In this document: piece after piece, positions 17,030-38,673 of the stretch
Layout: each line of letters begins with the position of its first letter
Position numbering within the stretch: the first letter of the stretch is position 1
Made by a program: the position numbers and the translations under genes
The notes under the pieces: model-generated
What the model was told of the DNA's origin: nothing
Database searches by the model: none
The model's input: the letters and a program-made list of their open reading frames with translations, nothing else
Assembly (NCBI RefSeq): GCF_030142075.1
Contig: NZ_CP126241.1
Span: 744,001 to 808,000, forward strand
Direction: 5' to 3'
DNA from: Arthrobacter sp. zg-Y20
GTDB taxonomy: Bacteria > Actinomycetota > Actinomycetes > Actinomycetales > Micrococcaceae
Length of the DNA stretch: 64,000 nucleotides

Positions 17030-17582
17030 AACAGGCGACGCCGGGACCGGCCGCCGCCGTCAGAACCTCCCGGAACGCCGGATTCGGATGGGCATTCGGC
17101 AGCACCCGGCGTACACAGTGCAGGGCTTCCAGCGGCGGACCCTGGCCGCGCCTGCCCCGTACGGGCCGGCAACGGCCGGTTCGCACACATTGCAGCAGCA
17201 CTGATTTGCCCTCGGCATGGAAGCGTCCGACGGCGGCAGCAGTCTCCTGCAGCACGGAGCAGGGATTAGGCATTGGACTCCGCCGACGCGGAAATCCACC
17301 AGCCAGAAAGTCGCATGCTTCTCCGGGGCAATCCCGGGGACGTTGTCCGTGCCTAGTCGGCACAGGCTGAGCACTGCATCAAATGCCCAGCTCCGCCGTC
17401 CTACCCAGCGCGCCCACGCCGCCAAGCCAGACACCGTCGTCGTCCGGGTGCCGGACCAGGACATCGGTCCTGGACCAGGAGCCGTAGTCAAAGTGGGCCG
17501 TGCGTGGCCCCGCCGACCTGCCGACCGTTGCCATCGACCTGTCGCTGATGGGATGCAGACAGCTGATTGAGGTACCTGGCAT
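17019..17582 (-). pseudogene. Broken dual-specificity phosphatase-like gene
   Basis: No single frame covers the gene, but three minus-strand frames give consecutive pieces of one family. Piece 1 (from 17582) has HFDYGSWSRTDVLVRHPDDDG; piece 2 has AVLSLCRLGTDNVPGIAPE and ATFWLVDF; piece 3 has AAAVGRFHAEGKSVLLQCV, then LEALHCVRRVLPNAHPNPAF. These match the dual-specificity phosphatase domain often fused to ADP-ribosylglycohydrolases. The family's HC-x5-R active loop is destroyed: it reads QCV, and the RTPTVA-like part lies in another frame. At least two frameshifts. A decayed remnant in the island. Confidence 0.7.
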
Positions 17583-17617
17583 CCGATCGTCCTGATCAAA
17601 CTCAGAAAGAGAATATT

Positions 17618-19387
17618 ATGTCATTTCAGACGCCAAAAAGCGTTGAAGAGTTTCTAACTGCGATTCATCAACGCGACTATCTTATGCCTGCAATACAGCG
17701 CGAGTTTGTGTGGGGTCCGGATCAGATTATTAGGCTCTTTGATAGCCTAATGCGTGGTTATCCAGTGGGATCGTTCTTGCTCTGGGATGTTAAACGTGAA
17801 ACCGCGCAGTCATACACGTTTTATGAATTTTTGACTCGTTATCATGAGCGCGACAACCCGTATGCAGCCAAAGCAACGGTGCCAGCGGGGACTGGAACCA
17901 CTGCAGTCCTTGACGGCCAGCAGCGGTTGACATCCCTGAACATCGGCTTGTACGGCAGTTTTGCAGAGAAAAAGAAGTACGCGTGGTGGAATAGCTCTGA
18001 TGCTTTCCCTATAAAGCGGCTGTACATGAACCTTACTGAGGAGCCCGAAAATGAGGAGCTAGGTCTTAAATACGATCTTAGGTTCCTAACCGATAGCGAC
18101 GCAGAATCTGCCTCAAACGCTGAAGATAAGTGGTTCCGAGTAGGAACAGTCCTTGATCTTCCCGACTCGGGCCCCGCGATCATGAAGGAGCTCAATCGGA
18201 GAGGAATTAAGGCCTCAGACGAAGCTTTCCAAAGGCTGTACGATCTTTATCAGGCGGTCCGCATTCTCAAGCCGATGAATTATTTCTTGGTCAATGACCA
18301 GGATCCCGATAAGGTGCTCGAAATCTTTGTTCGAGTAAACAGCGGGGGGACGACCCTTTCGTATTCGGATTTGCTGCTCTCCATGGCCACTAACCAATGG
18401 AAGGAGCTCGACGCCCGCGAGGAAGTGCGCTCGATTGTGAGTGAGCTGAACAGCAACGCCGGACGTCAGTTCTCCTTCTCTAAAGATGTCGTTCTTAAAA
18501 CTGCACTCAGCATTGCCGGTGTGGATGTCCGTTTTAAGGTATCCAACTTCACGCAGGCAAACATGGGCAAGGTAGAAGGGGCGTGGCTAGAGATTAGGGG
18601 AGCGCTTCTTCGCGCCGCTACCCTGCTCCAGCAGTTTGGTTATAACGAGCGTAATCTCACGGCTAACAGTGTCATCGTCCCCATGGCGCAGTACCTGTAC
18701 CTTCGCCGAGCGAACGATTCGTACCTTGATTCGACTGCTGACGCACCGGATCGCCAAGTCCTACAGCGGTGGGTCACCCGGTCACTCATTAAGCGCGGGA
18801 TTTGGGGCTCTGGGCTGGATACGATGCTTCTTCGGATCCGGGAAATTCTCGTGGACAACCATTCAAGTTTTCCGGTTGGCGCGATCGAGAGCGCCATGGC
18901 TGGCGCTGGAAAGAGCTTGTCGTTCGATGCGGCCGAGGTGGACGAGCTCCTCAACCTCAAATATGCCGGGCAACGCACCTTCTCAGTACTGTCCATCCTC
19001 TATCCCGGATTGGATCTCAGCAAGAAGTTCCACGAAGACCATATTTTCCCGAAGTCTCGCTTCACGCGGAAGAAACTGGAGGCCGCGGGAATACAGAGTG
19101 ACAAGATCGAGGAGTACCTCGGAGCGGTGAATCTTCTGCCCAACCTTCAGCTCCTGGCAGGAACAGCGAACATAGAAAAGCAGGACTCCTTGCCCTCTGA
19201 ATGGATCGGGAAAGCGTTCGCAGGCCAGTCGAAGCGGGACGCTTACCTTGCTGATAATGACCTTGACGGTGTGCCGCTTGATCTGGAGGGCTTCGTCCAA
19301 TTCTTTGAAGAGCGCAAACGTCGAATGAGGGATCGTTTGATCCAGGTGCTTGGGCGCACTCTGGCTGAAGAGCAGGGAGAGTCCTAG
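17618..19387 (+). CDS. DUF262 / HNH (DUF1524-like) protein, GmrSD/BrxU-like type IV restriction candidate
   Basis: 589 residues. The N-terminus has the ParB/sulfiredoxin-fold DUF262 features: AIQREFVWGPDQIIRLFDSLMRG-like opening (22-46) and DGQQR (99-103), the motif needed for nucleotide hydrolysis in GmrS-type proteins. The C-terminal part has HEDHIFPKS and an N-containing LLPNLQLL segment, an HNH/His-Me-finger nuclease region. GmrSD and BrxU proteins with this pairing cut modified (glucosylated or hydroxymethylated) phage DNA; here both halves are in one chain. Base composition is lower in GC than the neighbours, supporting acquisition. Start at the ATG at 17618; a weak AGAAAGAGA ribosome site precedes it. 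Confidence 0.85.
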   Translation: MSFQTPKSVEEFLTAIHQRDYLMPAIQREFVWGPDQIIRLFDSLMRGYPVGSFLLWDVKRETAQSYTFYEFLTRYHERDNPYAAKATVPAGTGTTAVLDGQQRLTSLNIGLYGSFAEKKKYAWWNSSDAFPIKRLYMNLTEEPENEELGLKYDLRFLTDSDAESASNAEDKWFRVGTVLDLPDSGPAIMKELNRRGIKASDEAFQRLYDLYQAVRILKPMNYFLVNDQDPDKVLEIFVRVNSGGTTLSYSDLLLSMATNQWKELDAREEVRSIVSELNSNAGRQFSFSKDVVLKTALSIAGVDVRFKVSNFTQANMGKVEGAWLEIRGALLRAATLLQQFGYNERNLTANSVIVPMAQYLYLRRANDSYLDSTADAPDRQVLQRWVTRSLIKRGIWGSGLDTMLLRIREILVDNHSSFPVGAIESAMAGAGKSLSFDAAEVDELLNLKYAGQRTFSVLSILYPGLDLSKKFHEDHIFPKSRFTRKKLEAAGIQSDKIEEYLGAVNLLPNLQLLAGTANIEKQDSLPSEWIGKAFAGQSKRDAYLADNDLDGVPLDLEGFVQFFEERKRRMRDRLIQVLGRTLAEEQGES

Positions 19388-19540: not shown

Positions 19541-22500
19541 GTGGATGTAACTGGAGAATTCGGCGGCTTGAATCAAGGGTTGTACGAAGCCCTGCACACG
19601 CGGCACCTACAGAACCTGATAAATCAGAACCCTGAACTGCAGCCCGTTTTCCGATCCATCCCTGAGGATGAGTCTCCAGCCATTCTGGCGGACTACGTCG
19701 CATCCAGAGTTCGTGACTTCCTGACCGATACGAAGCCCGAGGGGCGTGTCAGTCTGGTTAATCAGATCCTCCAGCAGCTGGTGTCGGACACGATTCAGCC
19801 AGGCCCCCAACAACTAACCTCTCTGTTTCCGACAGAGGAACTGCGCCGTCGCCAGCTGCGCCGACCATCAACGCCGCTCAGCCAGCCGGCCCTGCTGACG
19901 AATGGTAAGGACGATCCCAACCTTGCCGCTGAAATCCGCACGGAAATGGGTTCGGCTGACACGGTAGACATGCTCTGTGCCTTCATCCGCTGGAGCGGCC
20001 TGCGCCTGCTCGAACCGGCTCTGGCAGAACTCCGGGACCGCGGTGTGAAGCTGCGGGTCCTCACCAGCACGTACATGGGCGCCACGGAACGCCGTGCCAT
20101 CGATGAACTCGCTCTGAAATACGGAGCCGAGATCAAAATCAACTACGAAACCCATGCCACTCGGCTGCATGCCAAGGCATGGCTCTTTCGGCGCAACACC
20201 GGGTTCGACACTGCCTATGTGGGCAGCTCCAACCTCAGCGCGCCGGCCATGCTCGACGGACTGGAATGGAACGTCCGGCTTTCCGCAGTCGGCACGCCGG
20301 AGCTGCTGCAAAAATTCGAGGTCACTTTCGACAGCTACTGGCAGCAGCCCGCATTTCAGACATACGACCCTATCCGCGACGGCGACAAACTCGACGCCGC
20401 CCTGGCCCGCAACGGCGGCAAGTCCACGGCGCTCCCGGCGGCAGCTACCGGATTGGAAATCCAGCCCTACGTCCACCAGCAGGAAATGCTGGAGGAATTG
20501 GACGCAGCGCGGGAAGTCCACGGTCATCACCGCAACCTCCTCGTTGCTGCGACGGGAACCGGGAAAACGGTTATCGCCGCGCTGGACTACAAGCGCCTGT
20601 GCGAAGCAGAAGGACGGCCGCTTTCCCTACTCTTCGTGGCCCACCGGAAAGAGATCCTGGAGCAGTCTCTGCGCACTTACCGCGACGTGATGCAGAGCGG
20701 CTCCTTTGGCGAGTTGTTCGTCGGTGACAATAAGCCGACCCAATGGAAACAGGTGTTCGCCAGCGTCCAGTCCCTGGCCGCCCTCGGCATCGAACAGCTC
20801 GACGCCGACGCGTTCGAGGTCGTCGTTATTGACGAGTTCCATCACGCCCAGGCGCCAACGTATCGGCGACTGATCGACCGCCTGCGTCCTCAGGAGCTGC
20901 TGGGCCTGACCGCTACCCCGGAGCGAGGTGATGGCGTCAACGTTGCGGAGCAGTTCTTTGATGGCCGCGTCGCCAGTGAACTCCGTTTGTGGGACGCGCT
21001 GGACGCCGATCTCCTTGTGCCTTTCCACTACTTCGGCGTGGCCGACGACGTCGATCTCTCCCAGGTTGAATGGAAGCGCGGAAACTACGACGTCGGTGAG
21101 CTCAGCAACCTGTACACAGGCAACGACGCGCGGGCCGCGAAGGTCATTACCGAGCTGCGGGACAAGGTCTCGTCCACGCAGCAGATGCGCGCCCTGGGAT
21201 TCTGCGTTTCGGTACAGCATGCGGAATACATGGCGAAGGTCTTCCACGGGGCAGGCATTCCCTCCGTCGCCGTATCGGGGGACACCCCGGGCGATGAACG
21301 GTCCGATGCGCTCAGGCGACTCCGGAGCCGGGAACTGAACTGCATCTTCGCGGTCGACCTCTTCAACGAGGGACTCGACCTCCCTGAAGTCGACACCATC
21401 ATGCTGCTTCGTCCGACGCAGAGTTCCACCGTCTTCCTGCAACAGCTCGGACGGGGGCTGCGCCGGGCGAAGGACAAATCGGTGCTCACAGTGCTGGACT
21501 ACATCGGCCAGCAGCACCGCGAGTTCCGCTTCGAGACCAAGCTTCGGGCACTCACGGGGCTGGGTCGGAAGCCACTGGCAAAGGCCGTCGAGGATGAATT
21601 CCCGCATCTGCCGTCCGGTTCGCAGATTGTGCTGGACCGGGTGGCACAGAAGATCATTCTCGACAATATCCGCGCCCAGCTTCGCTTTAGCAAGCGTCAG
21701 CTCATTGCGGACGTAAAGTCCCACGGTGGACTGAGGTTGGAGGACTTCCTGGAAGCATCCGGACTGAGCCTGGCAGACATTTACCGGAAGACCGGCGACT
21801 CATGGACGGCGCTGCTCCGTGGCGCCGGTCTCGTGGATCTGGCGTATGGGCCGGAGGCCGTCGTCGCGGGAAAACCGACGGTGTCCGTGGCGGAGGAGGC
21901 GCTTCTGCTTCGCCGGATGACGACCTTCCTGTGCGTGGACGATCCCGAACGGGCTGAAACGTATGCCCGCCTGGTGTCGGATGACACCCTGCGTTATGAC
22001 CGGTTGGGGGACCGGGAGCAGACGCTGGCCCGCATGCTCTTTTTCGCTCTGTGGCCGGAAGGCGGCGGTTTTGAGGATTACGACGCCGGATTGGACTTCG
22101 TCCGCGCACTGTCACCGGTTGTGTCCGAAATCCGGCAGCTTATGGAATTGGGTGTTCAGCGGTCCCGCTACTCGCCGAAAGGACTGGGCAGGGGACTGCA
22201 GTATGTGCCGCTGTACTCGCATGCCACCTACCGGCGGGAGGAAGTTCTGGCAGGCCTGGGCTACCTCTCACTGGACGGGCGCCGGGCACGCCACCGTGAA
22301 GGTGTTGCCTGGTGCGAGGATACGAATACGGATGCCTTCTTCGTCACGCTTGAGAAGGATGCCAAGGACAGGGCGGCGTCGATCATGTATAAGGACTACG
22401 CGATGAGTCCTGAGGTATTCCACTGGGAATCCCAGAACGCCACGTCTCCTGACAGCCCTACCGGTCAGCGGTATCTGAACCACAAGAAGGCAGGCAGTCA

Positions 22501-22681
22501 GGTGCTGTTGTTCACCCGGCCACGTGAAAACGACGACTCGGGTTTGACCATGGCCTACACCTGCCTGGGGCAAATGGACTACATGTCGCACACGGGATCA
22601 AAGCCGGTTGCGATCACCTGGAAGCTGCAGAGGCCGATGCCTGGGGATGTTTATGTGGATGCTAGTGCGGTGGCTCTCTAG
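19541..22681 (+). CDS. PLD-family nuclease / SF2 helicase / DUF3427 fusion protein
   Basis: 1046 residues from GTG 19541; a TTG at 19568 (LNQGLYEAL) fits family starts better, so the exact start is open. Domains in order: an N-terminal region; a phospholipase D-like nuclease with one HxK motif (HAK, 210-212, and GSSN, 228-231); a superfamily II helicase with Walker A ATGTGKT (~337-343), DEFH box (431-434), a TATP motif and a C-terminal helicase motif QQLGRGLRR; then a DUF3427-type C-terminal region. Such fusions occur in phage-defence and R-M neighbourhoods. The single HxK suggests it dimerises to form the nuclease site. Stands between the DUF262 gene and an unknown small gene. Confidence 0.88.
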   Translation: MDVTGEFGGLNQGLYEALHTRHLQNLINQNPELQPVFRSIPEDESPAILADYVASRVRDFLTDTKPEGRVSLVNQILQQLVSDTIQPGPQQLTSLFPTEELRRRQLRRPSTPLSQPALLTNGKDDPNLAAEIRTEMGSADTVDMLCAFIRWSGLRLLEPALAELRDRGVKLRVLTSTYMGATERRAIDELALKYGAEIKINYETHATRLHAKAWLFRRNTGFDTAYVGSSNLSAPAMLDGLEWNVRLSAVGTPELLQKFEVTFDSYWQQPAFQTYDPIRDGDKLDAALARNGGKSTALPAAATGLEIQPYVHQQEMLEELDAAREVHGHHRNLLVAATGTGKTVIAALDYKRLCEAEGRPLSLLFVAHRKEILEQSLRTYRDVMQSGSFGELFVGDNKPTQWKQVFASVQSLAALGIEQLDADAFEVVVIDEFHHAQAPTYRRLIDRLRPQELLGLTATPERGDGVNVAEQFFDGRVASELRLWDALDADLLVPFHYFGVADDVDLSQVEWKRGNYDVGELSNLYTGNDARAAKVITELRDKVSSTQQMRALGFCVSVQHAEYMAKVFHGAGIPSVAVSGDTPGDERSDALRRLRSRELNCIFAVDLFNEGLDLPEVDTIMLLRPTQSSTVFLQQLGRGLRRAKDKSVLTVLDYIGQQHREFRFETKLRALTGLGRKPLAKAVEDEFPHLPSGSQIVLDRVAQKIILDNIRAQLRFSKRQLIADVKSHGGLRLEDFLEASGLSLADIYRKTGDSWTALLRGAGLVDLAYGPEAVVAGKPTVSVAEEALLLRRMTTFLCVDDPERAETYARLVSDDTLRYDRLGDREQTLARMLFFALWPEGGGFEDYDAGLDFVRALSPVVSEIRQLMELGVQRSRYSPKGLGRGLQYVPLYSHATYRREEVLAGLGYLSLDGRRARHREGVAWCEDTNTDAFFVTLEKDAKDRAASIMYKDYAMSPEVFHWESQNATSPDSPTGQRYLNHKKAGSQVLLFTRPRENDDSGLTMAYTCLGQMDYMSHTGSKPVAITWKLQRPMPGDVYVDASAVAL

Positions 22682-26652: not shown

Positions 26653-27588
26653 CTAGAACTTGTCGAAAAAGTCCTGATCGACTTTCTTGACGACGACGGT
26701 GCGGTCCACCTGGACGCCGACCCCGTATTCGAACATCAGTGTCGCAAGGCGCTGTCCGTCGATCAGGATAAGTGTGTAGTGCGCGGTATCCCGAGCTACA
26801 GCCCGGGCACCGCTGGTGAAGCTGGATGTGGTGATAAAGATGCCCTTGGTGGCTCGAAACTGCCCCAGCGCACCGCTGAACGCCTGGACCTCGGGCGCGC
26901 CGACATTGTTTCCTTCGGAATACCGCTTGGCCTGCAGATAAACCCGGTCGAAGCCCAGGGCGTCCTGCCAGACGATGCCGTCCACGCCCTTGTCCCCGGA
27001 ACGCTGCGTAGGTTTAAGGTTGTCCTCCCGGTCCGTGCCATAACCGAGAGCCCGAACCACAAAGGGGATCAGGTGCTCGAAGGCATCGGGGGAGAGCTCC
27101 AGCAGGTTGCGGTAGATCTCCTCGATGACCACCTGATTCAGCTGCGCGGCCGACTGCTCCAATGCTTCGGATGGATCAGATTCGACGACTGCGGCACCGT
27201 CTACGTCGATGCCTGGCACTGGGACCGCTGAGGCAGCCTTAGGCCGGCGCGAAATTTCCTGATACACACGGTATGGCTCATATTCCCGCAAGGACTGATG
27301 AGTGAGCTGGGTACTCTCGTTAGCGCGCCGCAGTCCCTCATCGCTGATCCGGTACTGCCCCCGGGCCTGACGGACCAGGAGGCCCGCCTTCATGGAGTCG
27401 AAGACGGCCCAGTTGATGCGGTTGGCCCAGCGCGCTTCTCCGGAGGACATGACTTCCGCCATGTCCTCGGCGGAGAGCTTCTCTCGCTCAGCGACAGCTG
27501 TCCGGATCTCTGCGTTACGCCGGACCTGCCCGTCGGCCATGATCCGAATAACGGGGTCTACGAACCCATGCCACTGGGGCAATGCCAT
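26653..27588 (-). CDS. mrr: Mrr-family restriction endonuclease embedded in the type I operon
   Basis: 311 residues from the ATG at 27588. The first ~100 residues are a winged-helix-like Mrr N-terminal domain (WANRINWAVFDSMKAGLLVR). The catalytic domain has FEHLIPFVVRALGYG, then GDKGVDGIVWQDALGFD (D203) and YLQAKRY (Q219-A-K221): the G-x-D...QxK nuclease core of Mrr. The gene starts two bases after the hsdS stop and ends 12 bp before hsdR, so it belongs to the operon. Mrr proteins cut methylated DNA in other bacteria; here it may act as an independent type IV activity or as an accessory to the type I complex. Confidence 0.88.
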   Translation of the reverse strand: MALPQWHGFVDPVIRIMADGQVRRNAEIRTAVAEREKLSAEDMAEVMSSGEARWANRINWAVFDSMKAGLLVRQARGQYRISDEGLRRANESTQLTHQSLREYEPYRVYQEISRRPKAASAVPVPGIDVDGAAVVESDPSEALEQSAAQLNQVVIEEIYRNLLELSPDAFEHLIPFVVRALGYGTDREDNLKPTQRSGDKGVDGIVWQDALGFDRVYLQAKRYSEGNNVGAPEVQAFSGALGQFRATKGIFITTSSFTSGARAVARDTAHYTLILIDGQRLATLMFEYGVGVQVDRTVVVKKVDQDFFDKF

Positions 27589-27590
27589 GC

Positions 27591-28844
27591 TTACACCGCT
27601 CCTTCGCGTACATCGATTTTGCCGGTGACTGCTGCGGAAATCAGGGCGGAGCGGCGCTCTTGTAGGAGACCTATAAGCCGCCGGCACCGATCTTGCACTC
27701 CACTTAGCGCGGATAGGCGTTGTTGTACCGTCTTTACTATTTCTCTCTGTTCCGATTCTGGTGGGAAGGGCATGACCATTCTGCCCAGCTTGTCGGACGG
27801 TAAATGCATGAGAGTAGCACCGGAGCACTGCATAGCCACGTAGCCAGAAGCCCGCGCTATGACCATGTAAAGGTGGAAGTATTCAGAGCACGCGTCTCTC
27901 TGGGGGCGGACTCGATTTAGAGATTTTTCGAAGCCATAGTCGGAGACGGTTGCGTCAACTACCACTGACTGTCCGATCGAGCCGCCTTCAACCACTAGAA
28001 CGTCGCCAGGACGTAGGGACAAGTTGCTCACCTCCGCGGGAGAGAACCACATTTTGTTTGTATCGTCCGCGACCATCCCGTCCGGCTGCACACTTGCGGC
28101 TTTCAGATAGGGGCGAAGAACGTCCAAGGCGGTTTCTTGCTCGCGCTGACGCATCTTACCGAGTACGATTTCGTAGAATCTTCGAACAGGACCGATCTTC
28201 CAGTGAGTTGGGATAGCACCAAGCCACGGAACGCCAGAACTCTTGGTGGAGGCGGATGGGTCGAGTCCCTTGGTGACGGCTTGGGTGATGACGGCCTGGC
28301 GCTTTTCGGCCAGCAACTCGATGAGCCGCTCCTGTTTGTCGATCAGGTCATCGATCTGCAAGATTTCGCGGTCAAGGAATTCGGCAATGGCGAGCTGCTC
28401 TTGAAACTCGAGTCTTGGCACGCCGTACTGCCCTAAAGATCCCACATCTATCCGGGAAAATCCCGAGACATCCGGATCCGATGCGCCAAGCCCTCCCATC
28501 GTGGATTTCATGAAGTTGGACAACTCTTCGGAGCGCAGCATAAATTCTAGGAATTTGGGATGCGAATTCCGGGTTGGGCGAAGTACAAGGTAATCGGGAC
28601 TAACGATTCCTCGTTCCGTGCTGATTCCGAGAGATCCCCTGTAGGCATTGAAGCGGTTGAGTACTAAATCGCCAATGTCGCAGATCTTGTACTTGTCAAA
28701 GCTGTCCGCGCGCGGAGGTTTGTCACTTATGAGCTCACGCCGCACAACACCTAGTGTCTGCGACACTGACAGCAGCGGTGGCATGGACCTGTCACCGAGT
28801 CGGTCATCAATTTCGCGCCATAAGTGACGTAGCTGGGTATTCAC
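27591..28844 (-). CDS. hsdS: Type I restriction-modification specificity subunit S
   Basis: 417 residues. The two-target-recognition-domain plan is visible. The first domain spans ~1-165, the central conserved helix carries EFLDREILQIDDLIDKQERL and LLAEKRQAVITQAVTKG, and the second domain starts GVPWLGAIPTHWKIGPV. The C-terminal helix is RRSALISAAVTGKIDVRE. HsdS sets the recognition sequence by pairing two half-sites. ATG overlaps the hsdM stop (ATGA). Base composition is lower in GC than hsdM or hsdR, as is usual for exchanged recognition domains. Recognition sequence cannot be predicted from this. Confidence 0.92.
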   Translation of the reverse strand: MNTQLRHLWREIDDRLGDRSMPPLLSVSQTLGVVRRELISDKPPRADSFDKYKICDIGDLVLNRFNAYRGSLGISTERGIVSPDYLVLRPTRNSHPKFLEFMLRSEELSNFMKSTMGGLGASDPDVSGFSRIDVGSLGQYGVPRLEFQEQLAIAEFLDREILQIDDLIDKQERLIELLAEKRQAVITQAVTKGLDPSASTKSSGVPWLGAIPTHWKIGPVRRFYEIVLGKMRQREQETALDVLRPYLKAASVQPDGMVADDTNKMWFSPAEVSNLSLRPGDVLVVEGGSIGQSVVVDATVSDYGFEKSLNRVRPQRDACSEYFHLYMVIARASGYVAMQCSGATLMHLPSDKLGRMVMPFPPESEQREIVKTVQQRLSALSGVQDRCRRLIGLLQERRSALISAAVTGKIDVREGAV

Positions 28845-31053: not shown

Positions 31054-34000
31054 CTACCGGCTGTAAGGGGCAAGACCTTCATTTCCGGCGACTACCATAG
31101 CGTCGACCAGCGCCTGCCAATCCTCAAGTTTGCTGAATTCATCGGCGGTGTTTCGAATTTCCTTTAGCCATTCATTCGAGTACCAGGTCTGTTTTACGAT
31201 GATTAGGCCGTCTCGGGTGCAGAGCTCTGTGATCCAAGCGAGACCGTGGGTTACCTGTTCGGATAACGGGAGCTTGCGAAGGATTCGAATGAGTGCATCA
31301 ACACACTTAGTTCTGCCGTGACCAAGCAAAACCCACTGATCGATGAAACCGAGAAGGTCTTCGCCCTTAACCCAATCGATGGGTGGCCCATTGAGTTCCC
31401 TATAGAGGCCTTGAACCCAAGAAAGTGGTTCGGGCAGAAGTGCTGCGGCTGCCCAGTCACCCCAGTGGCTATCCCGGTAGGGGTTGGGGTCCCGACGGGT
31501 ATACGTGAGGGCCTGGTCAAGGACCGAGGGCCAGAGATCGCGCGCCGCTTGTGCGCGCCTATCGTTCTCCGCGCCGGCAGCCGTGAGGCCGTGGAGAAGT
31601 CCGGACAACAGGCCAGCGTGCGCGCTGAGGGCATCGAGGTGCTCGATGATGGGTTGAGGGTCTTGGGAAATCGCATAGTTGTCGAGAAGTGCGCGGGCAC
31701 CGACCAGGGCGTGGGTCCCGCGGTGGTCGGCGCGCCGTCCACGGTCCTCATCGCTCAGCATAGTCCGGCGTTGGATGTCGAGGAACTGAGCGAGAAGCCG
31801 ATTGGCTTCGGCGGTGTGGCAGTGACGGTTGGCGGCGGCATTCCCAAAGCCTCGAATGGCAGCATCGAGCATTCTGAGATCGATGGAGGTGCCATCGAGC
31901 TCTTGAAGCCGGGCTGAGATATCACCGTCGATGTAGGCATTCCGCGGGCGTTGTGAGGGCTTCTCCCATTCACCGAGCTCAGCCCCTCGCGCTGTTTCGA
32001 GGAGCCAGCCGAGCGCAGTCTCGTGAATGCAAGGCTCCCCATGGCACGGCGTGGCCCAGACGACGTCACACCCGCGGGATAGATAGAGTCTGGTTTCGAG
32101 TGGTGCGTTGCAAGCAATGGCCATCCCGGCAGCGAAAAGATCTTCTGTGCTTGCTCCGATGGGAGAGAGGAGGCCGGCCAGAGCGGGCGTTAGGAATGCC
32201 GGGAGAGCGTTGGCCACCGCGCGGTCGGCGCCAAGATCGAAGTACTGATCTTCTCTTCGCTGGTCGTCCGAGGCTTTGAAGGATAGGGCCACATCGAACA
32301 CAAGTTGGGCTACGAACCTGGATTCGTTACCGAGGGCTGCAGCTTCGCCGGCGACAGCCCGTTGAACGGCGACCCGAACGACGTGCGCGGCGGCGTTAAC
32401 CGGCTGCGACGGCATCATGTCGGTGTCCGCTTCGAGGAGCTCGCGCGCAGTTGTGAGGTCTTTGGCTATCTCTGCTGATGTGGGTGGCACATAGTCGGCG
32501 TCGTGCTTTGCAGAACCCCAGTAGCGGTTCTGCAGTCGCAGGCTGGTGTTCACCTGTTCCTCGTAGATGGCGTGCTGAGCCTGCGCCGCCTGAAGATCCT
32601 CCGGCAGGTTGACCTGAAGATAAAGGCGGTCGCCCTGCTGAGTGACCTCGTACCGGTCTGCGTCGAGACTCGCGGCCCAGTTTTTTGTAAGCTCCTCCGG
32701 TATGCCAAGACCGGATCCGTTGGCGACGAGGAGATCACCGACAGCTTTGAGCGCCTGAGTACGTTCCCCATTTCCGCTCGTCATGAGGGTCACGGAAACT
32801 TCGCGAGGAGACCATTGGCGTCGTTCTTGGTGTTTCAGATCGTCGGTATGAGGGGCGAGGCCGTTGGACTCACCAGCTAAGCGTGCAAATTCGAGTTGCC
32901 ACACGATCGGTTCAGCTAGGAACCGGTCGAGCTCGTCCTTGACCTTGTCGAGGTGTCTGGTTAGAAGACCGAACAACATCCCGGGCACGGCGAGATTCTC
33001 GCAGCCCTCAAGGAGGGTCTCGAGGACTTGTTCCGGAGACTCCCCGGCGTCGAGCCAGCTCTCGGCGACACGTTCCATGGCGAGGAGAGCGCTCATCCCG
33101 GAATACGGCCCTACCGAGGTCCCGCGATACCAGCTCCACACATGGTCGTCGCCTACGTAGAGCCGTCGGGCACCGTCCAGATTGAGTTCCACCCCGGATT
33201 CACGCTCATCTTGGGAACCAGGCTTGTAGTCGACAGCTACCTCGAATGGAGCTATGTCCAAGCCAGCGAGGGTACAGACACGGAATTGGGCGCCGTGGTT
33301 GAGGATCTTGTTTAGGACACGGGCTGAAGTCTTGGACGAGGCCGTATTAAAAAGTGCCCAGAAACCGCCGTAGTAGTACTCGTAGAACGGTGAGGGGAAG
33401 CCTTTCCACCGGCCGTGGTGGTCCCGGACCCCATCTCCGTAATGCCAGCCGGTGTCTTCCTCGTCGATGTAGTAGGCCTCCATCAGTTGGGCTAGTAGCT
33501 CCGGGTCATGCAGGGCGATGGCCCGCGCGCTCAGGGGAGAGTCTGCGGCGGGCGCAAGGGAGGCAGGGGCGTCCTCGGCGATCGCAAGGAGGTATCGCTC
33601 GATACTGTCGTCGATGTCTGGCCCGAGAAGTGCTAAGCACTCGATGTACTCCTCCCTGGTGACCTCGTGCGGGAGCTCCTTCCTAAGTACATGGCTGGGC
33701 CTAAAACCCAGCCCCGCTAACGGGTCATCTTCATCATCGTTCTGAGCCTGCACTGGTGGCGGGAATGATCTCCAGTAAGCGACTAGGCGGTCCCGCAGGT
33801 CAATACGAAGCTGGTTGCCAGCGGGCACGTGAAGCATTACGAGAGCCTGCAGCCAGCTGGCGAGGAGCTCGAACGATGGTGTCGACAGCAGCCAGGGTTC
33901 GGGGTCGTCGAGAAGAATTCTGACGATTGGTGCGGCCACGAGGGGATCCACGAGGCCGTTGACTCGGTGGCGTTGTTCGACAACACGAACGACGGTGTCG

Positions 34001-36144
34001 AGATTGATAGGGGAGGATTGGTTGCCAAGTTCGGCCTTCAGGCACTCGTATGCGTTCGGGTTGTCGAGGAGAGCTTCAATTGGAAGATCCGACCAGCGTG
34101 GTCCGAACTGGCTTGCGATAGCGCTGAACTCCTGGACCATGCGGGCAAACACCTGGGGCGCACGGGCTCCAGGCGCGCGGAGTTGTCCCTTACAAGCGAG
34201 AGTCGCGGCTGAGAGGGCCCATCGTGGACCTCCCGCGATCCGAAGCGTGTCGGTCACTCGCTGTGCGCGAACCAGGAGTACAGCGGTGGCGTACCGACGT
34301 ATTTCGTCGTGGGCGAACTCGGGACGACTCAAGTACGGGCTGGCTGGGGTCAACAGGTGGTCGCGGCGCAATGCGTCAACTGCGGCGGGAACGAGGATCA
34401 CCGTGGGATGCCGGTCCGAGGGAAGGTTGAGCGTTGCGGCAGCAACGGCTAGGAGGGTCTGCTCGCGTGCTTCGGCGGAGCCTGCTGCTGGGTCATCTTC
34501 CCTGCGGACGATTTTGCTCCAGATGAGGCTAAGACAATCCCAATCGCTCAAGGGACCTTTGAGCCTGATTCCGGTGCGGGCCAAGAGGTCGAGGACGACC
34601 AGGCGTCGTAGCAGCGATACTTCGGGCAGGGAACGCAGGACGTTGCGCAGCAACGGGAAGTGTTCTGCGACTGTTGCGATGTCGGTGTTGCCGAGCGGCT
34701 CCATGATGAAGGAGTTGGCGTTCTTACTGAATCCGAAAGTTACCTGTTCGTTGACGAACTCTCGCGCGGTATCTGCGGCAACCGCGATGACACCGACGCC
34801 TGCCTGTGCGGCTGCGAGGACGAGGTCGCTGAGGAGGCTGGCGGAGCGTTCGAGAGCGGCGTCCGCAGCGTCAATCACAAGCACCCGGGTCGGGGCGGAA
34901 AGCTCAGCGAGAACTTCGGTTAAAGATACGCCGACAGCAGCGCTGAACTCCATGCTCGTTTGGGGGAGAGCGCGGAAGTTCACGACGATTGCCTCGAAAC
35001 CCGCGGGGTCTTCGGCTTCGAGCTGTGCAATGCAGGAGAGGGTTAGTGCGCTCTTTCCGGTGCCGGACTCGCCTGACACAACGAGCGCCGCGGTATCGGT
35101 TCCAGTCTTTCGGATCGCAGCGATGAGACTGTCGCGGCGGTCGGCGAACGCAATTTCGAGTGAGCCGGAAGTCGTGGACTCACTTCCGAGGGTGGCTCGG
35201 ACACTGGCAGCTGCTAGTCTGCGGTGCTCTGAGAGCGCCCTGAAAGCTCGGTTGTTGCGCGTTGCGCTGGTCTTTAGGAGTGCGTGAAGGTCTCGCCGGA
35301 GAAGGTTCAGATCAACGACGGCCCCTGTGGCGTCGTATCGGGTCGCTTCGGCTTCCAGCCGATTTCTGATGGTTATGCCGTCGGATGTGTCTGCTGCAAC
35401 GAGGTCGAGCGCGGTTGCAGCTGCCGTGCGGTCACGTTCGTCGGGGCTTTGCACTCGGAAACTCAGAATACGGAGACGAGACAGAAGTCTGAACGCTAAT
35501 CGGAGAACCTCCGCCTCTGTGCTCGTCTCCTCTGTGACAAGTGTGACCATTTGAAGGAAGTGGTCGAAGCGTTCGCGGACCTTTTTCGACCATCTCTTGT
35601 TCACGTCCAGGGATGCTTGGAATGAGGTCGCGTCAGCGGTGCTGCGAGCGATGTCACATACAGTGGCGAGACTCTCCCACTGATTGGACCAGCCAGCGAC
35701 TGCCACAGCGACCTGGTGTGTGTAAGTATCGAATTTCGCTATCTCGGCTAGGAGTGAACCCACCAGTTTTACTGTCTGTTCGTCACTCTGAACGAAGTTC
35801 GGGGTGGCTCGGCATGCTACCGCAACGGTGACTTCGGTCGTTCCATCAGAGCACTCGAGAAGTAGGTCATCGACCGGATGAGCCGGCCCCGTTTGGAATG
35901 AGAGACGCCGGAGGGGTAACTCTGATGCTTCCGTTCTGCGTTCTCCTGCCAGGAGACTAGCCATGTATATGGCCGCGATGCGGTGCGCAAGGGACACCCC
36001 GCCGCCTCCGGTCGCGTAGGTGCTTGATCCGGATGCGGATTCGGCCCGAAGCGGGGCTGTGGCAACGGTACCTTCGTCAAGGCGTTCATCGGGTTTGCTC
36101 GGCGGAGGTGCGCTCTGGGGGTTGGTCGAATCCTCCGTCGTCAC
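31054..36144 (-). CDS. Large STAND-type NTPase (~1,700 residues) with possible degenerate nuclease-like N-terminus; candidate defence protein
   Basis: About 1,696 residues. Start GTG at 36144 is favoured because AGAGGAA precedes it; an ATG seven codons earlier has no ribosome site. After a disordered Pro/Ser-rich ~45 residues comes GGGGVSLAHRIAAIYMASLL, then PVDDLLLECSDGTTEVTVAV. This layout resembles the Cap4/Mrr-like nuclease domains of antiviral STAND (Avs-like) proteins, but the usual QxK is replaced by ACRATPNF, so it may be inactive as a nuclease. A P-loop (GESGTGKSAL, ~358-367) and Walker B (VLVIDAADA) mark the NTPase; the remaining ~1,200 residues are helical, with no named repeat family visible. 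Encoded upstream of the hsd operon on the same strand. Confidence 0.8.
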   Translation of the reverse strand: MTTEDSTNPQSAPPPSKPDERLDEGTVATAPLRAESASGSSTYATGGGGVSLAHRIAAIYMASLLAGERRTEASELPLRRLSFQTGPAHPVDDLLLECSDGTTEVTVAVACRATPNFVQSDEQTVKLVGSLLAEIAKFDTYTHQVAVAVAGWSNQWESLATVCDIARSTADATSFQASLDVNKRWSKKVRERFDHFLQMVTLVTEETSTEAEVLRLAFRLLSRLRILSFRVQSPDERDRTAAATALDLVAADTSDGITIRNRLEAEATRYDATGAVVDLNLLRRDLHALLKTSATRNNRAFRALSEHRRLAAASVRATLGSESTTSGSLEIAFADRRDSLIAAIRKTGTDTAALVVSGESGTGKSALTLSCIAQLEAEDPAGFEAIVVNFRALPQTSMEFSAAVGVSLTEVLAELSAPTRVLVIDAADAALERSASLLSDLVLAAAQAGVGVIAVAADTAREFVNEQVTFGFSKNANSFIMEPLGNTDIATVAEHFPLLRNVLRSLPEVSLLRRLVVLDLLARTGIRLKGPLSDWDCLSLIWSKIVRREDDPAAGSAEAREQTLLAVAAATLNLPSDRHPTVILVPAAVDALRRDHLLTPASPYLSRPEFAHDEIRRYATAVLLVRAQRVTDTLRIAGGPRWALSAATLACKGQLRAPGARAPQVFARMVQEFSAIASQFGPRWSDLPIEALLDNPNAYECLKAELGNQSSPINLDTVVRVVEQRHRVNGLVDPLVAAPIVRILLDDPEPWLLSTPSFELLASWLQALVMLHVPAGNQLRIDLRDRLVAYWRSFPPPVQAQNDDEDDPLAGLGFRPSHVLRKELPHEVTREEYIECLALLGPDIDDSIERYLLAIAEDAPASLAPAADSPLSARAIALHDPELLAQLMEAYYIDEEDTGWHYGDGVRDHHGRWKGFPSPFYEYYYGGFWALFNTASSKTSARVLNKILNHGAQFRVCTLAGLDIAPFEVAVDYKPGSQDERESGVELNLDGARRLYVGDDHVWSWYRGTSVGPYSGMSALLAMERVAESWLDAGESPEQVLETLLEGCENLAVPGMLFGLLTRHLDKVKDELDRFLAEPIVWQLEFARLAGESNGLAPHTDDLKHQERRQWSPREVSVTLMTSGNGERTQALKAVGDLLVANGSGLGIPEELTKNWAASLDADRYEVTQQGDRLYLQVNLPEDLQAAQAQHAIYEEQVNTSLRLQNRYWGSAKHDADYVPPTSAEIAKDLTTARELLEADTDMMPSQPVNAAAHVVRVAVQRAVAGEAAALGNESRFVAQLVFDVALSFKASDDQRREDQYFDLGADRAVANALPAFLTPALAGLLSPIGASTEDLFAAGMAIACNAPLETRLYLSRGCDVVWATPCHGEPCIHETALGWLLETARGAELGEWEKPSQRPRNAYIDGDISARLQELDGTSIDLRMLDAAIRGFGNAAANRHCHTAEANRLLAQFLDIQRRTMLSDEDRGRRADHRGTHALVGARALLDNYAISQDPQPIIEHLDALSAHAGLLSGLLHGLTAAGAENDRRAQAARDLWPSVLDQALTYTRRDPNPYRDSHWGDWAAAALLPEPLSWVQGLYRELNGPPIDWVKGEDLLGFIDQWVLLGHGRTKCVDALIRILRKLPLSEQVTHGLAWITELCTRDGLIIVKQTWYSNEWLKEIRNTADEFSKLEDWQALVDAMVVAGNEGLAPYSR

Positions 36145-36300
36145 CGCTGTTCCTCTCAGATCCATATGCGTCTTGTCTATTGTGCCGTGGAACTAGTCCG
36201 TCGGTGATTATTCTCGGCCGCGGGTTTCGCCAGCTACTACTGATGCTTACGCTCCACACCATCTGGACGCTGGGCGACGAAGCCGGGTAAACCGGAGGGC

Positions 36301-37242
36301 ATGGGACAGATCCTCATCCGACAGCCGGTTGGCATGTGCGTGGACGTCATGGTGGAGACTGATGGAAAGGTGCCGCTCGTAGAGTGCAAGCTGGCTTCCA
36401 ATCCGCAGATCCGACGCGAGATCGTCGGACAGATGTTCGACTACTCCTCACGACGGTGGAAGATAGGCATCGAGGACCTTGACGCTCGGTGGCAAGACCG
36501 GGCCCGTCAATCCCCGTTCCCTGCCGACGACGGCGTCCGGCTGCGTGACGCCGTTACCAAGAGTCTCATGCAGGGGCTTTGGATTGTGTTGGTCGGTCGA
36601 GGCGATCAACGAGCAGCCGCTGAAGCGGATGACCGAATACCTCCGCCATGTCGGGACGGGACGCGTCGATGATTGCCGTCGAATACGCCCGGCTTAGGAA
36701 GGGCTCGATTGAGATGCTGATGGCACAGACCTAAGGTGAGGAACTGGCGGAAGCGAAAGCATCGTCGGCCACCCGCGATCGAACAGCGTGGGACGCAGAG
36801 CCTTATCGGGAGTGGCTGGATGGGTACGAACAGGTGTCGGTCCCAAACTTCGTTGCGTTTATCGACGAGGCCGCAGCACTGGGGTGGATTTCGAAGGCTC
36901 CAAAGCAGTCACTCGTCGGGCGGGTTGAAGATCCACGATGCGCAGGGCGGACGGCTCGGCACCGTGACTCTCCAGGGCGCCTCGGTGGAGTTCAATCTCA
37001 TTCCCATGTCCCGGCTGCCCGACGGCGAGTGGCCAGCGGATGCCGCAGTTGAGCTTCTGAGTGAGCGGGAAAAACACGTCGGGGTGCTGACTGGCGTCCA
37101 CCGCAATCTGCGCGCCAGCAGGTTCGCCACCCGGCGGCCCAACATGTCGCTGGCATCGCTGGACGAGGAATCCGTGCGCCGCGGGCTGTCTGCGCTGACG
37201 ATCCTGCGGGAAAGTTCGGAAAGCACCCCGCCAGTGTGTTGA
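36301..37242 (+). pseudogene. Decayed PD-(D/E)XK nuclease-like gene
   Basis: Pieces in several frames read as one protein. 36301 onwards: VDVMVETDGKVPLVECKLASNPQIRREIVGQMFDYSSR, which has an E-x-K nuclease-like core (ECK). Then AINEQPLKRMTEYLRHVGTG in a second frame, and MIAVEYARLRKGSIEMLMAQ ending in a stop. Then EQVSVPNFVAFIDEAAALGW, and from ~36910 a fourth piece, DAQGGRLGTVTLQGASVEFN to the end. At least three frameshifts plus one stop. This relic of an actinobacterial nuclease-domain protein lies just before arcA, marking the right edge of the island. Confidence 0.7.
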
Positions 37243-37340
37243 CTGACAAAGCCGCAAAGCCGGAGGTCAACAGCAACGATTCGGTCCCCGCCCCTCCGTC
37301 TGGAAGGATGCTCCTAAGCCTGCTGATAAAGGAGTCACCC

Positions 37341-38612
37341 ATGCCTTCCCCCGTCCCTGCCGCCCCAGAGGGCATTGCCTCCACCTACGGCGTCCACTCC
37401 GAGGTCGGCAGACTCCGCAAGGTCCTGGTCTGCGCCCCAGGCCTGGCCCACGAGCGGCTCACGCCCACCAACCGGGAAGACCTGCTGTTTGACGACGTGA
37501 TGTGGGTGGAAAACGCCCAGCGCGACCACGCCGACTTCGTCACCCAGATGACCGACCGCGGCGTCGACGTCGTTGAACTCCACGACCTCCTCGGCGCCAC
37601 GCTGGACATCCCCGAGGCCCGCACCTGGCTCTTGGACCGGAAGATCATCGCCAACCGGGTCGGCCTCGGGCTGGTCGCCGGCACACGTGCGTTCCTGGAT
37701 TCGCTCACCGGCGCGGAGCTGGCGCGCTACCTCATCGGCGGGCTGACGACGTCGGACGTTCCCGACGACTACCTCGGCAGTTACGTTGCCCTGGTCCGCG
37801 AATCCACCGGTCGGCCCGAGTACCTGCTGCCGCCGCTGCCCAACACCCTCTACACCCGCGACACCACGTGCTGGATCGGCTCCGGGCTGACCATGAACCC
37901 GCTGTACTGGCCGGCCCGGCACGACGAGACCCTGCTGATGCAGGCCATCTACCGGTTCCACCCGGACTACGTAGGCGCGAAAATCTGGTGGGGCGACGCG
38001 GAAAAGGACTGGAGCCAGGCTTACCTGGAAGGCGGCGACGTCATGCCCGTGGGCAACGGCACCGTACTGCTGGGCATGGGGGAGCGGACCTCCCGGCAGG
38101 CCATCACCCAGCTCGCGCAGGCCCTGTTCAAGGACGAAGCGGCGGAGCGGATCGTCGTCGCCGGCATGCCCAAGCTGCGCTCCGCGATGCACCTGGACAC
38201 CGTGTTCACCTTCGCGGACCGGGACCTGGCCACCATCCACCCGGCCATCGTGGACGGCATCCACCCCTTCACCATCCACCCCTCGGACAAGGCCCCCGGG
38301 ATGGAAATCCGGGACCACCGGGACCGCCGCTTCGTGGACGTGGTCGCCGAAGCCATGGGTTATCGAAAGCTGCGCCTGGTGGAGACCGCCGGGGATTACC
38401 ACGCCACCGAACGCCAGCAGTGGGACAGCGCGAACAACGCCGTCGCCCTGGAACCGGGCGTGGTGTTCACCTACGACCGCAACACCCAGACCAACGCGGC
38501 GCTGCGCAACGCCGGCGTCGAGGTCATCCCGATCGTCGGCGCCGAACTGGGCCGCGGCCGCGGCGGCGGGCACTGCATGACCTGCCCGATCATCCGGGAT
38601 CCGCTGGATTAA
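37341..38612 (+). CDS. arcA: Arginine deiminase
   Basis: 423 residues. [19 protein letters not shown] opens the family; [30 protein letters not shown] and the C-terminal [14 protein letters not shown] (nucleophile Cys, about residue 411) are the deiminase signatures. It hydrolyses arginine to citrulline and ammonia, the first step of the ADI pathway; no arcB/arcC/arcD is in the window. The ATG at 37341 has AAAGGAGT upstream; longer in-frame starts lie in remnant DNA. It is the first intact gene right of the island. Confidence 0.95.
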
Positions 38613-38673
38613 CGACGACGGCGGAAGCGGCGGAGCGGGGGCGGTCCGCTGGCTAGAGGTTACTCAGCTCCAT

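What the first reader, a model, noticed from the sequence alone, without database searches (positions are those of the whole stretch)
31054..36144. Candidate undescribed STAND defence protein with a possible degenerate nuclease-like N-terminus
A ~1,700-residue single gene beside a type I R-M operon. It has a Cap4/Mrr-like beta segment with DD but, in place of the usual QxK, ACRATP, then a P-loop NTPase and ~1,200 residues of helical sensor region. This combination resembles Avs-type sensors but with a changed N-terminus, so it might use a different effector activity or act only as a sensor. Family naming is inference; no search was run.
Basis: partly seen in the sequence, partly recalled or inferred. 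Interest (0 to 1): 0.72.

Follow-up and report, generated by a model that had tools for sequence, protein, structure and literature searches.

The report
Avs4-like sensor with degenerate nuclease
A large bacterial immune-sensor gene, distantly related to a known phage sensor, carries in its killing position a nuclease-like domain whose cutting residues have been lost yet which still seems to be kept by selection, so it may act in some way other than cutting DNA.

Summary
Window 31054-36144 (minus) is one intact gene (1,696 residues) in a slot whose cargo differs between related genomes. Its NTPase and sensor regions are distant homologues of Avs4: a 17-sequence family profile matches Avs4 (PDB 8dgf) at E=7e-26 over about 900 residues, although a profile of its own clade reaches only E=0.04.

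The N-terminal domain is probably a restriction-endonuclease-like module. Nine of nine proteobacterial relatives keep the catalytic D...QxK; 10 of 11 actinobacterial rows, this gene included, keep D but have [AG]xR. An aspartate invariant in the QxK rows is missing too. The domain is under purifying selection (dN/dS 0.17-0.19 in the best pair, 0.34 in another). It sits in an exchangeable effector slot: a relative whose body is 79% identical to another clade member's carries a trypsin-like domain there.

Best reading: an Avs-like phage sensor whose effector is a retooled, probably non-cleaving nuclease domain. Function, trigger and mechanism are inferred. Inactive nuclease-like domains in such systems are known in kind, so this is a new variant. 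Both structure predictions were too poor to use.

The parts
31054..36144 (-). The gene: 1,696-residue STAND protein (GTG start; an ATG at 36165 would give 1,703)
   Evidence: open frame; GAGAGGA before the GTG
35296..36030 (-). N-terminal effector-slot domain (residues 46-290), probably restriction-endonuclease-like, degenerate active site
   Evidence: 20-row alignment; profile match in catalytic register to Mrr-type nucleases, 0 of 200 column shuffles as high, but hhalign probability only 5.9%
35866..35871 (-). D99 D100, retained acidic pair; D99 aligns with the catalytic Asp of Mrr
   Evidence: invariant in 20 of 20 rows; alignment
35809..35817 (-). A117-C118-R119 in place of catalytic Q-x-K
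   Evidence: [AG]xR in 10 of 11 actinobacterial rows, QxK in 9 of 9 proteobacterial rows and in Nonomuraea
34066..35178 (-). STAND NTPase region (residues 330-700)
   Evidence: sub-threshold AAA_22/AAA_16; homologous to the Avs4 NTPase through the family profile
35050..35073 (-). Walker A GESGTGKS (K371)
   Evidence: G41 K42 S43 invariant in A2 and A6
34861..34884 (-). Walker B VLVIDAAD (D432)
   Evidence: D103 invariant in A2 and A6
31057..34068 (-). C-terminal sensor region (residues 700-1703)
   Evidence: Avs4 homology through profile A6 to about residue 1119 of the 1587-residue Avs4 chain; weak local Avs4 match
33121..33132 (-). Sensor motif W-Y-R-G (residues 1012-1015)
   Evidence: W683 and R685 invariant in 17 of 17 rows of A6

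Best explanation
This is a single-gene anti-phage STAND sensor related to Avs4. A phage protein (by homology perhaps the portal) binds the C-terminal repeats, the P-loop NTPase then drives oligomerisation, and the clustered N-terminal domains become the effector. In Avs4, and presumably in this gene's QxK-bearing relatives, that effector is a metal-dependent nuclease. In this actinomycete group the nuclease-like domain has lost the QxK of the active site, keeps the acidic pair, and has its own invariant residues (Y50, the TGGGG run, P122, R199, besides R119). It most likely still engages DNA, or a partner, without cutting by the usual chemistry. Shown here: homology, domain boundaries, motif replacement, constraint, effector-slot swapping, variable-slot context. 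Inferred: anti-phage function, trigger, oligomerisation, and the non-cleaving action.
For: Body homologous to Avs4: 17-row profile A6 vs 8dgf E=6.9e-26; profile of 8 proteobacterial relatives 3.6e-19. N-domain: the combined profile aligns to Mrr-type nucleases with D99 on the catalytic Asp and A117-C-R119 on QxK; 0 of 200 column shuffles score as high. QxK in 9 of 9 proteobacterial rows and Nonomuraea; [AG]xR in the other 10 of 11 actinobacterial rows. An Asp invariant in 10 of 10 QxK rows (position 237) is Asp in 0 of the 9 [AG]xR rows with a letter there. Constraint: N-domain dN/dS 0.17-0.19 against 0.22-0.25 for the rest (L012/L006). Effector slot: the L005 body is 79% identical to the L011 body but starts with a trypsin-like domain and follows a Trypco2 gene. 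Slot: both flanks found in 3 of 3 same-genus genomes held on both sides, with different cargo; neighbours are type I, type IV and HEC-05-type defence genes. A winged-helix-like extension precedes the domain in 3 of 8 full-length [AG]xR members (L006, L012, L013, the first two near-copies), compatible with work on DNA.
Against: No function was tested. The clade profile alone matches Avs4 only at E=0.04 and this protein matches the Avs4 models only at E=0.0022 and 0.0069; the link runs through relatives. The nuclease link rests on a low hhalign probability (5.9%, E=0.0064); the [AG]xR rows alone give no match, and the shuffle control was not backed by a control with unrelated real families. None of 20 members matched a nuclease family in Pfam except one RuvX match at E=0.25. 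A second pair with unsaturated synonymous sites gives a weaker dN/dS of 0.34 (L004/L011). No fold could be confirmed.
Confidence: 0.5

Rival explanations
1. The domain is still a nuclease with a shifted active site: D99/D100 with Q91, R119 or another residue do the chemistry, and the protein kills by cutting DNA as Avs4 does.
For: D99, D100, Q91 and R197 are kept in every row with a letter there; other nuclease families of this fold have replaced the lysine (recalled, no call).
Against: Q and K are both lost in the 10 [AG]xR rows together with the Asp at 237; the only acid or lysine invariant in those rows and not in the others is D245 (9 of 9 with a letter; 2 of 10 in the QxK rows), far from the motif.
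Confidence: 0.2
2. The domain is an adaptor: the oligomerised pseudo-nuclease recruits a separate effector encoded nearby or elsewhere.
For: The trypsin-bearing relative follows a separate Trypco2 gene; one relative has a small gene with a sub-threshold HARE-HTH match just upstream (L004); one neighbour pair is alike in two loci (L007 and L096, 34% identity).
Against: An all-against-all comparison of flanking frames of 10 loci and the window (pairs of at least 45 bits, both frames up to 1200 residues) showed no gene recurring beside the gene in three or more loci: apart from shadow frames of the gene itself there were transposases, a methylase resemblance and two further pairs. Flanks were limited in length.
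Confidence: 0.2
3. The domain carries a new catalytic activity unrelated to nucleic-acid cleavage, centred on the YxTGGGG run, R119 and P122.
For: Y50, the four-glycine run and P122 are invariant in the 10 [AG]xR rows and not in the QxK rows.
Against: No domain of known activity matched convincingly; no direct evidence.
Confidence: 0.1
4. The domain is a decaying relic and the gene is a sensor without effector, or a decoy.
For: Broken relatives exist (L003 in several frames; L010 ends beside an IS256 element); dN/dS of 0.34 in one pair.
Against: dN/dS 0.17-0.19 in the L012/L006 pair and residues kept strictly among rows only about 30% identical argue against decay.
Confidence: 0.07

Closest known systems
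Avs4 (AVAST type 4; PADLOC PDLC02169, NCBIfam NF041815, PDB 8dgf)
   Same: Large protein with STAND NTPase and long C-terminal sensor; homology over about 900 residues through the family profile; N-terminal nuclease in Avs4 by its NCBIfam description
   Different: Far below the Avs4 model cut-off (15.3 bits against 1500); active-site Q and K lost; trigger unknown
PDC-M54A (PADLOC phage-defence candidate)
   Same: L021, L004 and L008 match over the N-domain and NTPase at E 3e-12 to 7e-8 (3 of 4 scanned; L006 does not)
   Different: This protein itself does not match at E<=1; no paper found under this name
NACHT-associated inactive restriction endonuclease 1 (Pfam PF22722)
   Same: By its name, an inactive nuclease associated with an immune NTPase; sequences fetched with it align in register with this N-domain
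   Different: No member of 20 matches PF22722; most of the sequences fetched with it and aligned keep a Q-x-K-like motif themselves, so they served as the active-site reference, not as inactive examples
Trypsin-STAND proteins and Trypco genes (eLife 2020, PMC7159879, passages seen)
   Same: L005 has a trypsin-like domain, a Trypco2 neighbour and a body 59% identical to the window protein
   Different: A protease-type domain, not a nuclease-like one, in the effector slot

Membership tests
Avs4 | NTPase plus sensor homologous to Avs4 | tested here: met
   Family profile A6 vs 8dgf E=6.9e-26; clade alone only 0.04
Avs4 | Passes the curated Avs4 model | tested here: not met
   15.3 bits against cut-off 1500; PADLOC Avs4 E=0.0069
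Avs4 | N-terminal nuclease with intact catalytic residues | tested here: not met
   A-C-R in place of QxK
Avs4 | Activated by phage portal protein (recalled) | not testable with these tools
   needs experiment
STAND NTPase | Central P-loop NTPase with Walker A and B between an effector and a repeat sensor | tested here: met
   GKS and Walker B Asp invariant in 17 of 17; Avs4 homology; Pfam AAA hits are sub-threshold
PD-(D/E)xK / Mrr-type nuclease | Catalytic D ... (E/Q)xK | tested here: not met
   D kept, Q and K lost in this protein; intact in 9 of 9 proteobacterial rows and Nonomuraea
PD-(D/E)xK / Mrr-type nuclease | Restriction-endonuclease fold | tested here: inconclusive
   profile match in register, 0 of 200 shuffles as high, but probability 5.9%; models at pLDDT 42.6 and 49.2 only show a helix-strand-strand-strand-helix-strand order
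Cap4 nuclease (PF14130) | Match to the family | tested here: not met
   no member of 20 matches PF14130 in Pfam; N-domain profile against frames of the four fetched loci not significant (best E 0.068)
PDC-M54A | Match to PADLOC model | tested here: inconclusive
   3 of 4 relatives match, this protein does not

The most novel reading that the evidence does not exclude
A clade of Avs4-related immune sensors has converted its nuclease effector into a selected, non-cleaving 'pseudonuclease' that stops phage by binding (for example clamping DNA as an oligomer, or switching a partner), and this module is swapped for a protease in a sensor that is otherwise nearly the same.
Probability: 0.4. Interest if true: 0.68.

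Novelty: new variant of a known kind. Interest (0 to 1): 0.48.

Why it matters
The nuclease activity of Avs1-Avs4 is described as the cause of their altruistic cell death (PMC12931631, passage). A related sensor that keeps the domain under selection without its catalytic residues asks what else that domain does. The natural pair with 79% identical bodies but different effector domains (L011 nuclease-like, L005 trypsin-like) makes effector and sensor separable in one experiment. It also extends Avs4-type sensors into actinomycetes, where this gene is not recognised by the PADLOC and NCBIfam models I ran.

Tried and rejected
Structure: two AlphaFold jobs, on the window N-domain alone (pLDDT 42.6) and with the one admissible relative (pLDDT 49.2). 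Both were too poor, so no fold search was run. Viral relatives: five scans of IMG/VR with different queries found none, and none were found in 50,697 phage records at E<=1e-5. Cap4 membership was tried and not supported. The N-domain profiles against PDB sequences gave only weak, unrelated hits. A conserved partner gene was sought and none recurred in three or more loci. The PDC-M54A search rang in 33 of 197 genomes, mostly as short P-loop matches, and not in the window's own genome. The Avs4 model rang in 0 of 19 genomes and 0 of 14 controls, so it says nothing. Considered and rejected: simple relic (with the 0.34 pair told in the report); the ATG at 36165 as the start (a ribosome-binding site favours the GTG). 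What I say was not found in print rests on literature searches only, in open-licence papers; all papers used were seen as passages, none in full.

Full report
What is there. The gene at 31054-36144 on the minus strand is a single open frame of 1,696 residues from a GTG that has GAGAGGA upstream. I number residues from the ATG at 36165 (1,703 codons). It lies in a 3.53 Mb single-contig genome. It is rare: 0 of 58 related genomes, 5 of 295 other genomes of the class (of which two hold only a part) and 3 of 395 of the phylum (two genomes are shared, and the third holds only a part) have a match. Among 72,556 plasmid records 7 match; among 50,697 phage records none do.

Context. Downstream on the same strand are HsdM, HsdS and HsdR of a type I system, with an Mrr-type (type IV) endonuclease gene between HsdS and HsdR. 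Further left are a PLD-helicase gene matching a type IV enzyme and a GmrSD-type gene matching HEC-05. In the three same-genus genomes where I held the region on both sides (G012, G018, G026), a stretch matching window 17.0-17.5 kb and one matching 37.1-38.6 kb lie about 30, 36 and 37 kb apart, and no match of 150 bases or more at E<=1e-10 falls between about 17.5 and 37.1 kb of the window. For two more genomes (G008, G014) I held only the right side. So the gene sits in a slot whose contents differ between relatives.

The body is Avs4-related. Alone, the protein matches curated Avs4 models only weakly (E=0.0022, 15.3 bits against a cut-off of 1500; PADLOC E=0.0069). A profile of nine actinobacterial bodies reaches the solved Avs4 (8dgf) at E=0.04, second behind a GTPase. 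A profile of eight proteobacterial relatives reaches it at 3.6e-19, and one of all seventeen at 6.9e-26, aligned to Avs4 residues 206-1119 of 1587. The proteobacterial relatives were found by following one weak plasmid hit of the N-domain (E=4e-3); the Phyllobacterium protein aligns to the window protein over about 700 residues at 24% (E=9e-15 in a one-to-one comparison). Of the 18 plasmid records I used 9, one of them already in hand. P-loop lysine and Walker B aspartate are invariant in 17 of 17 bodies.

The N-terminal domain. The alignment has 20 rows. Nine of nine proteobacterial rows read QxK. Of eleven actinobacterial rows, ten, this protein included, read [AG]xR and one (Nonomuraea, L022) reads QxK. 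Three incomplete relatives left out of the count, L002, L003 and L016, read ACR, ACR and GVR. L005, which has a trypsin-like domain there, and L009 and L014, which lack the region, are outside the count. D99 and D100 are kept in 20 of 20. Besides R119, the residues Y50, the TGGGG run, P122, L134 and R199 are invariant in the ten [AG]xR rows, and most of these are not so in the QxK rows. An aspartate invariant in 10 of 10 QxK rows (position 237) is aspartate in none of the nine [AG]xR rows that have a letter there. On a tree built without the motif columns the eleven actinobacterial rows share one side of a branch with support 100/100. The motif label needs two changes on that tree, and one change in 49% of 200 bootstrap trees; Nonomuraea is among three long rows whose place is unsure.

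Is it a nuclease fold? A profile of the 20 rows aligns with a profile of 19 Mrr-type sequences (18 rows from the 20 loci fetched with Pfam's NA-iREase1, one of which is the window's own Mrr, plus that Mrr again as seed), with the aspartate and the QxK in register. None of 200 column-shuffled targets scores as high (observed 26.1, best shuffle 19.9); for the ten QxK rows alone the observed 22.7 is also above all 200 shuffles (best 21.6). Against this, the hhalign probability is only 5.9% (E=0.0064), the [AG]xR rows alone give no match (score 12.9), I ran no control with unrelated real families, and among 20 members only one weak nuclease-type Pfam match appears (RuvX, E=0.25). The two predicted models are poor, and I use them only to note that the order of elements, helix, three strands, helix, strand, is the one expected. 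I hold the derivation from such a nuclease as likely, not proven.

Constraint. For the pair L012/L006 dN/dS is 0.17-0.19 in the domain and 0.22-0.25 in the rest. For L004/L011 (dS 0.80, one method only, the other failed) the domain gives 0.34, still below one but weaker. Pairs with this protein (0.11 and 0.14) have saturated synonymous sites (dS above 2) and are only supportive.

The slot is exchangeable. The L005 body (Streptomyces plasmid) is 79% identical to the L011 body and 59% to this one, but its first 230 or so residues are a trypsin-like domain (Pfam PF00089, 22.4 bits against a cut-off of 20.6) with a Trypco2 gene upstream. The His, Asp and Ser expected of an active protease appear to be present by eye (sequence). 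Conversely, the window-type N-domain sits at 55% identity in L010 in front of an NTPase region that blastp does not align to this one, although a profile extends some way into it; that gene ends beside an IS256 element. Three of the eight full-length [AG]xR members (L006, L012, L013, the first two close copies) have a winged-helix-like extension in front of the domain (sub-threshold Pfam matches in L006, the one scanned).

How it works. By analogy with Avs proteins the C-terminal half should recognise a phage protein and the NTPase should assemble the effector domains. Passages of PMC12931631 that I saw state that Avs1-4 use nuclease effectors and sense terminase, portal or another phage protein; the original Avs paper is not held. 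With Q and K gone the usual chemistry is unlikely, so I favour a non-cleaving action on DNA or on a partner. Passages of PMC7159879 describe effector positions filled by inactive enzymes in bacterial conflict systems and propose dominant-negative or binding roles, which is precedent for the idea. A passage of PMC10853773 names an inactive restriction-endonuclease domain in another system, and Pfam holds a family named as a NACHT-associated inactive one. The idea is therefore not new in kind. The combination with an Avs4-type body, and the split between QxK and [AG]xR relatives, is what I did not find in print.

Verdict. It is a new variant of a known kind, with a concrete and testable oddity. 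Mending the draft (counts by phylum, the 0.34 pair, the two extra neighbour pairs) did not require a change of odds.

Noticed in passing
window 26653-27828 (-): An Mrr-type (type IV) endonuclease gene lies between HsdS and HsdR of the type I operon; the longest frame overlaps HsdS, and the domain match suggests the real start is about 80 codons later.
   Followed up: partly
window 17048-17532 and 37095-38624: Conserved flanks of a roughly 20 kb slot whose cargo differs in three same-genus genomes, next to an arginine deiminase gene.
   Followed up: partly
window 17567-19387 and 19541-22681 (+): HEC-05/GmrSD-type gene and a PLD-helicase type IV enzyme, further defence genes in the same slot.
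   Followed up: no
window 36301-36672 (+): Small divergent gene beside the STAND gene with a weak match to candidate PDC-S11 (E=2.6e-4).
   Followed up: no
L022 6836-10079: The Nonomuraea copy keeps QxK, but the nuclease-like domain and a P-loop protein are in two adjacent frames: a two-gene form or a broken gene.
   Followed up: no
L003 9959-10840: Amycolatopsis copy of the N-domain scattered over several frames, a broken relative.
   Followed up: no
L007 4782-5420 and L096 13744-14409: Frames near the gene in two loci are 34% identical to each other; identity and role unknown.
   Followed up: no
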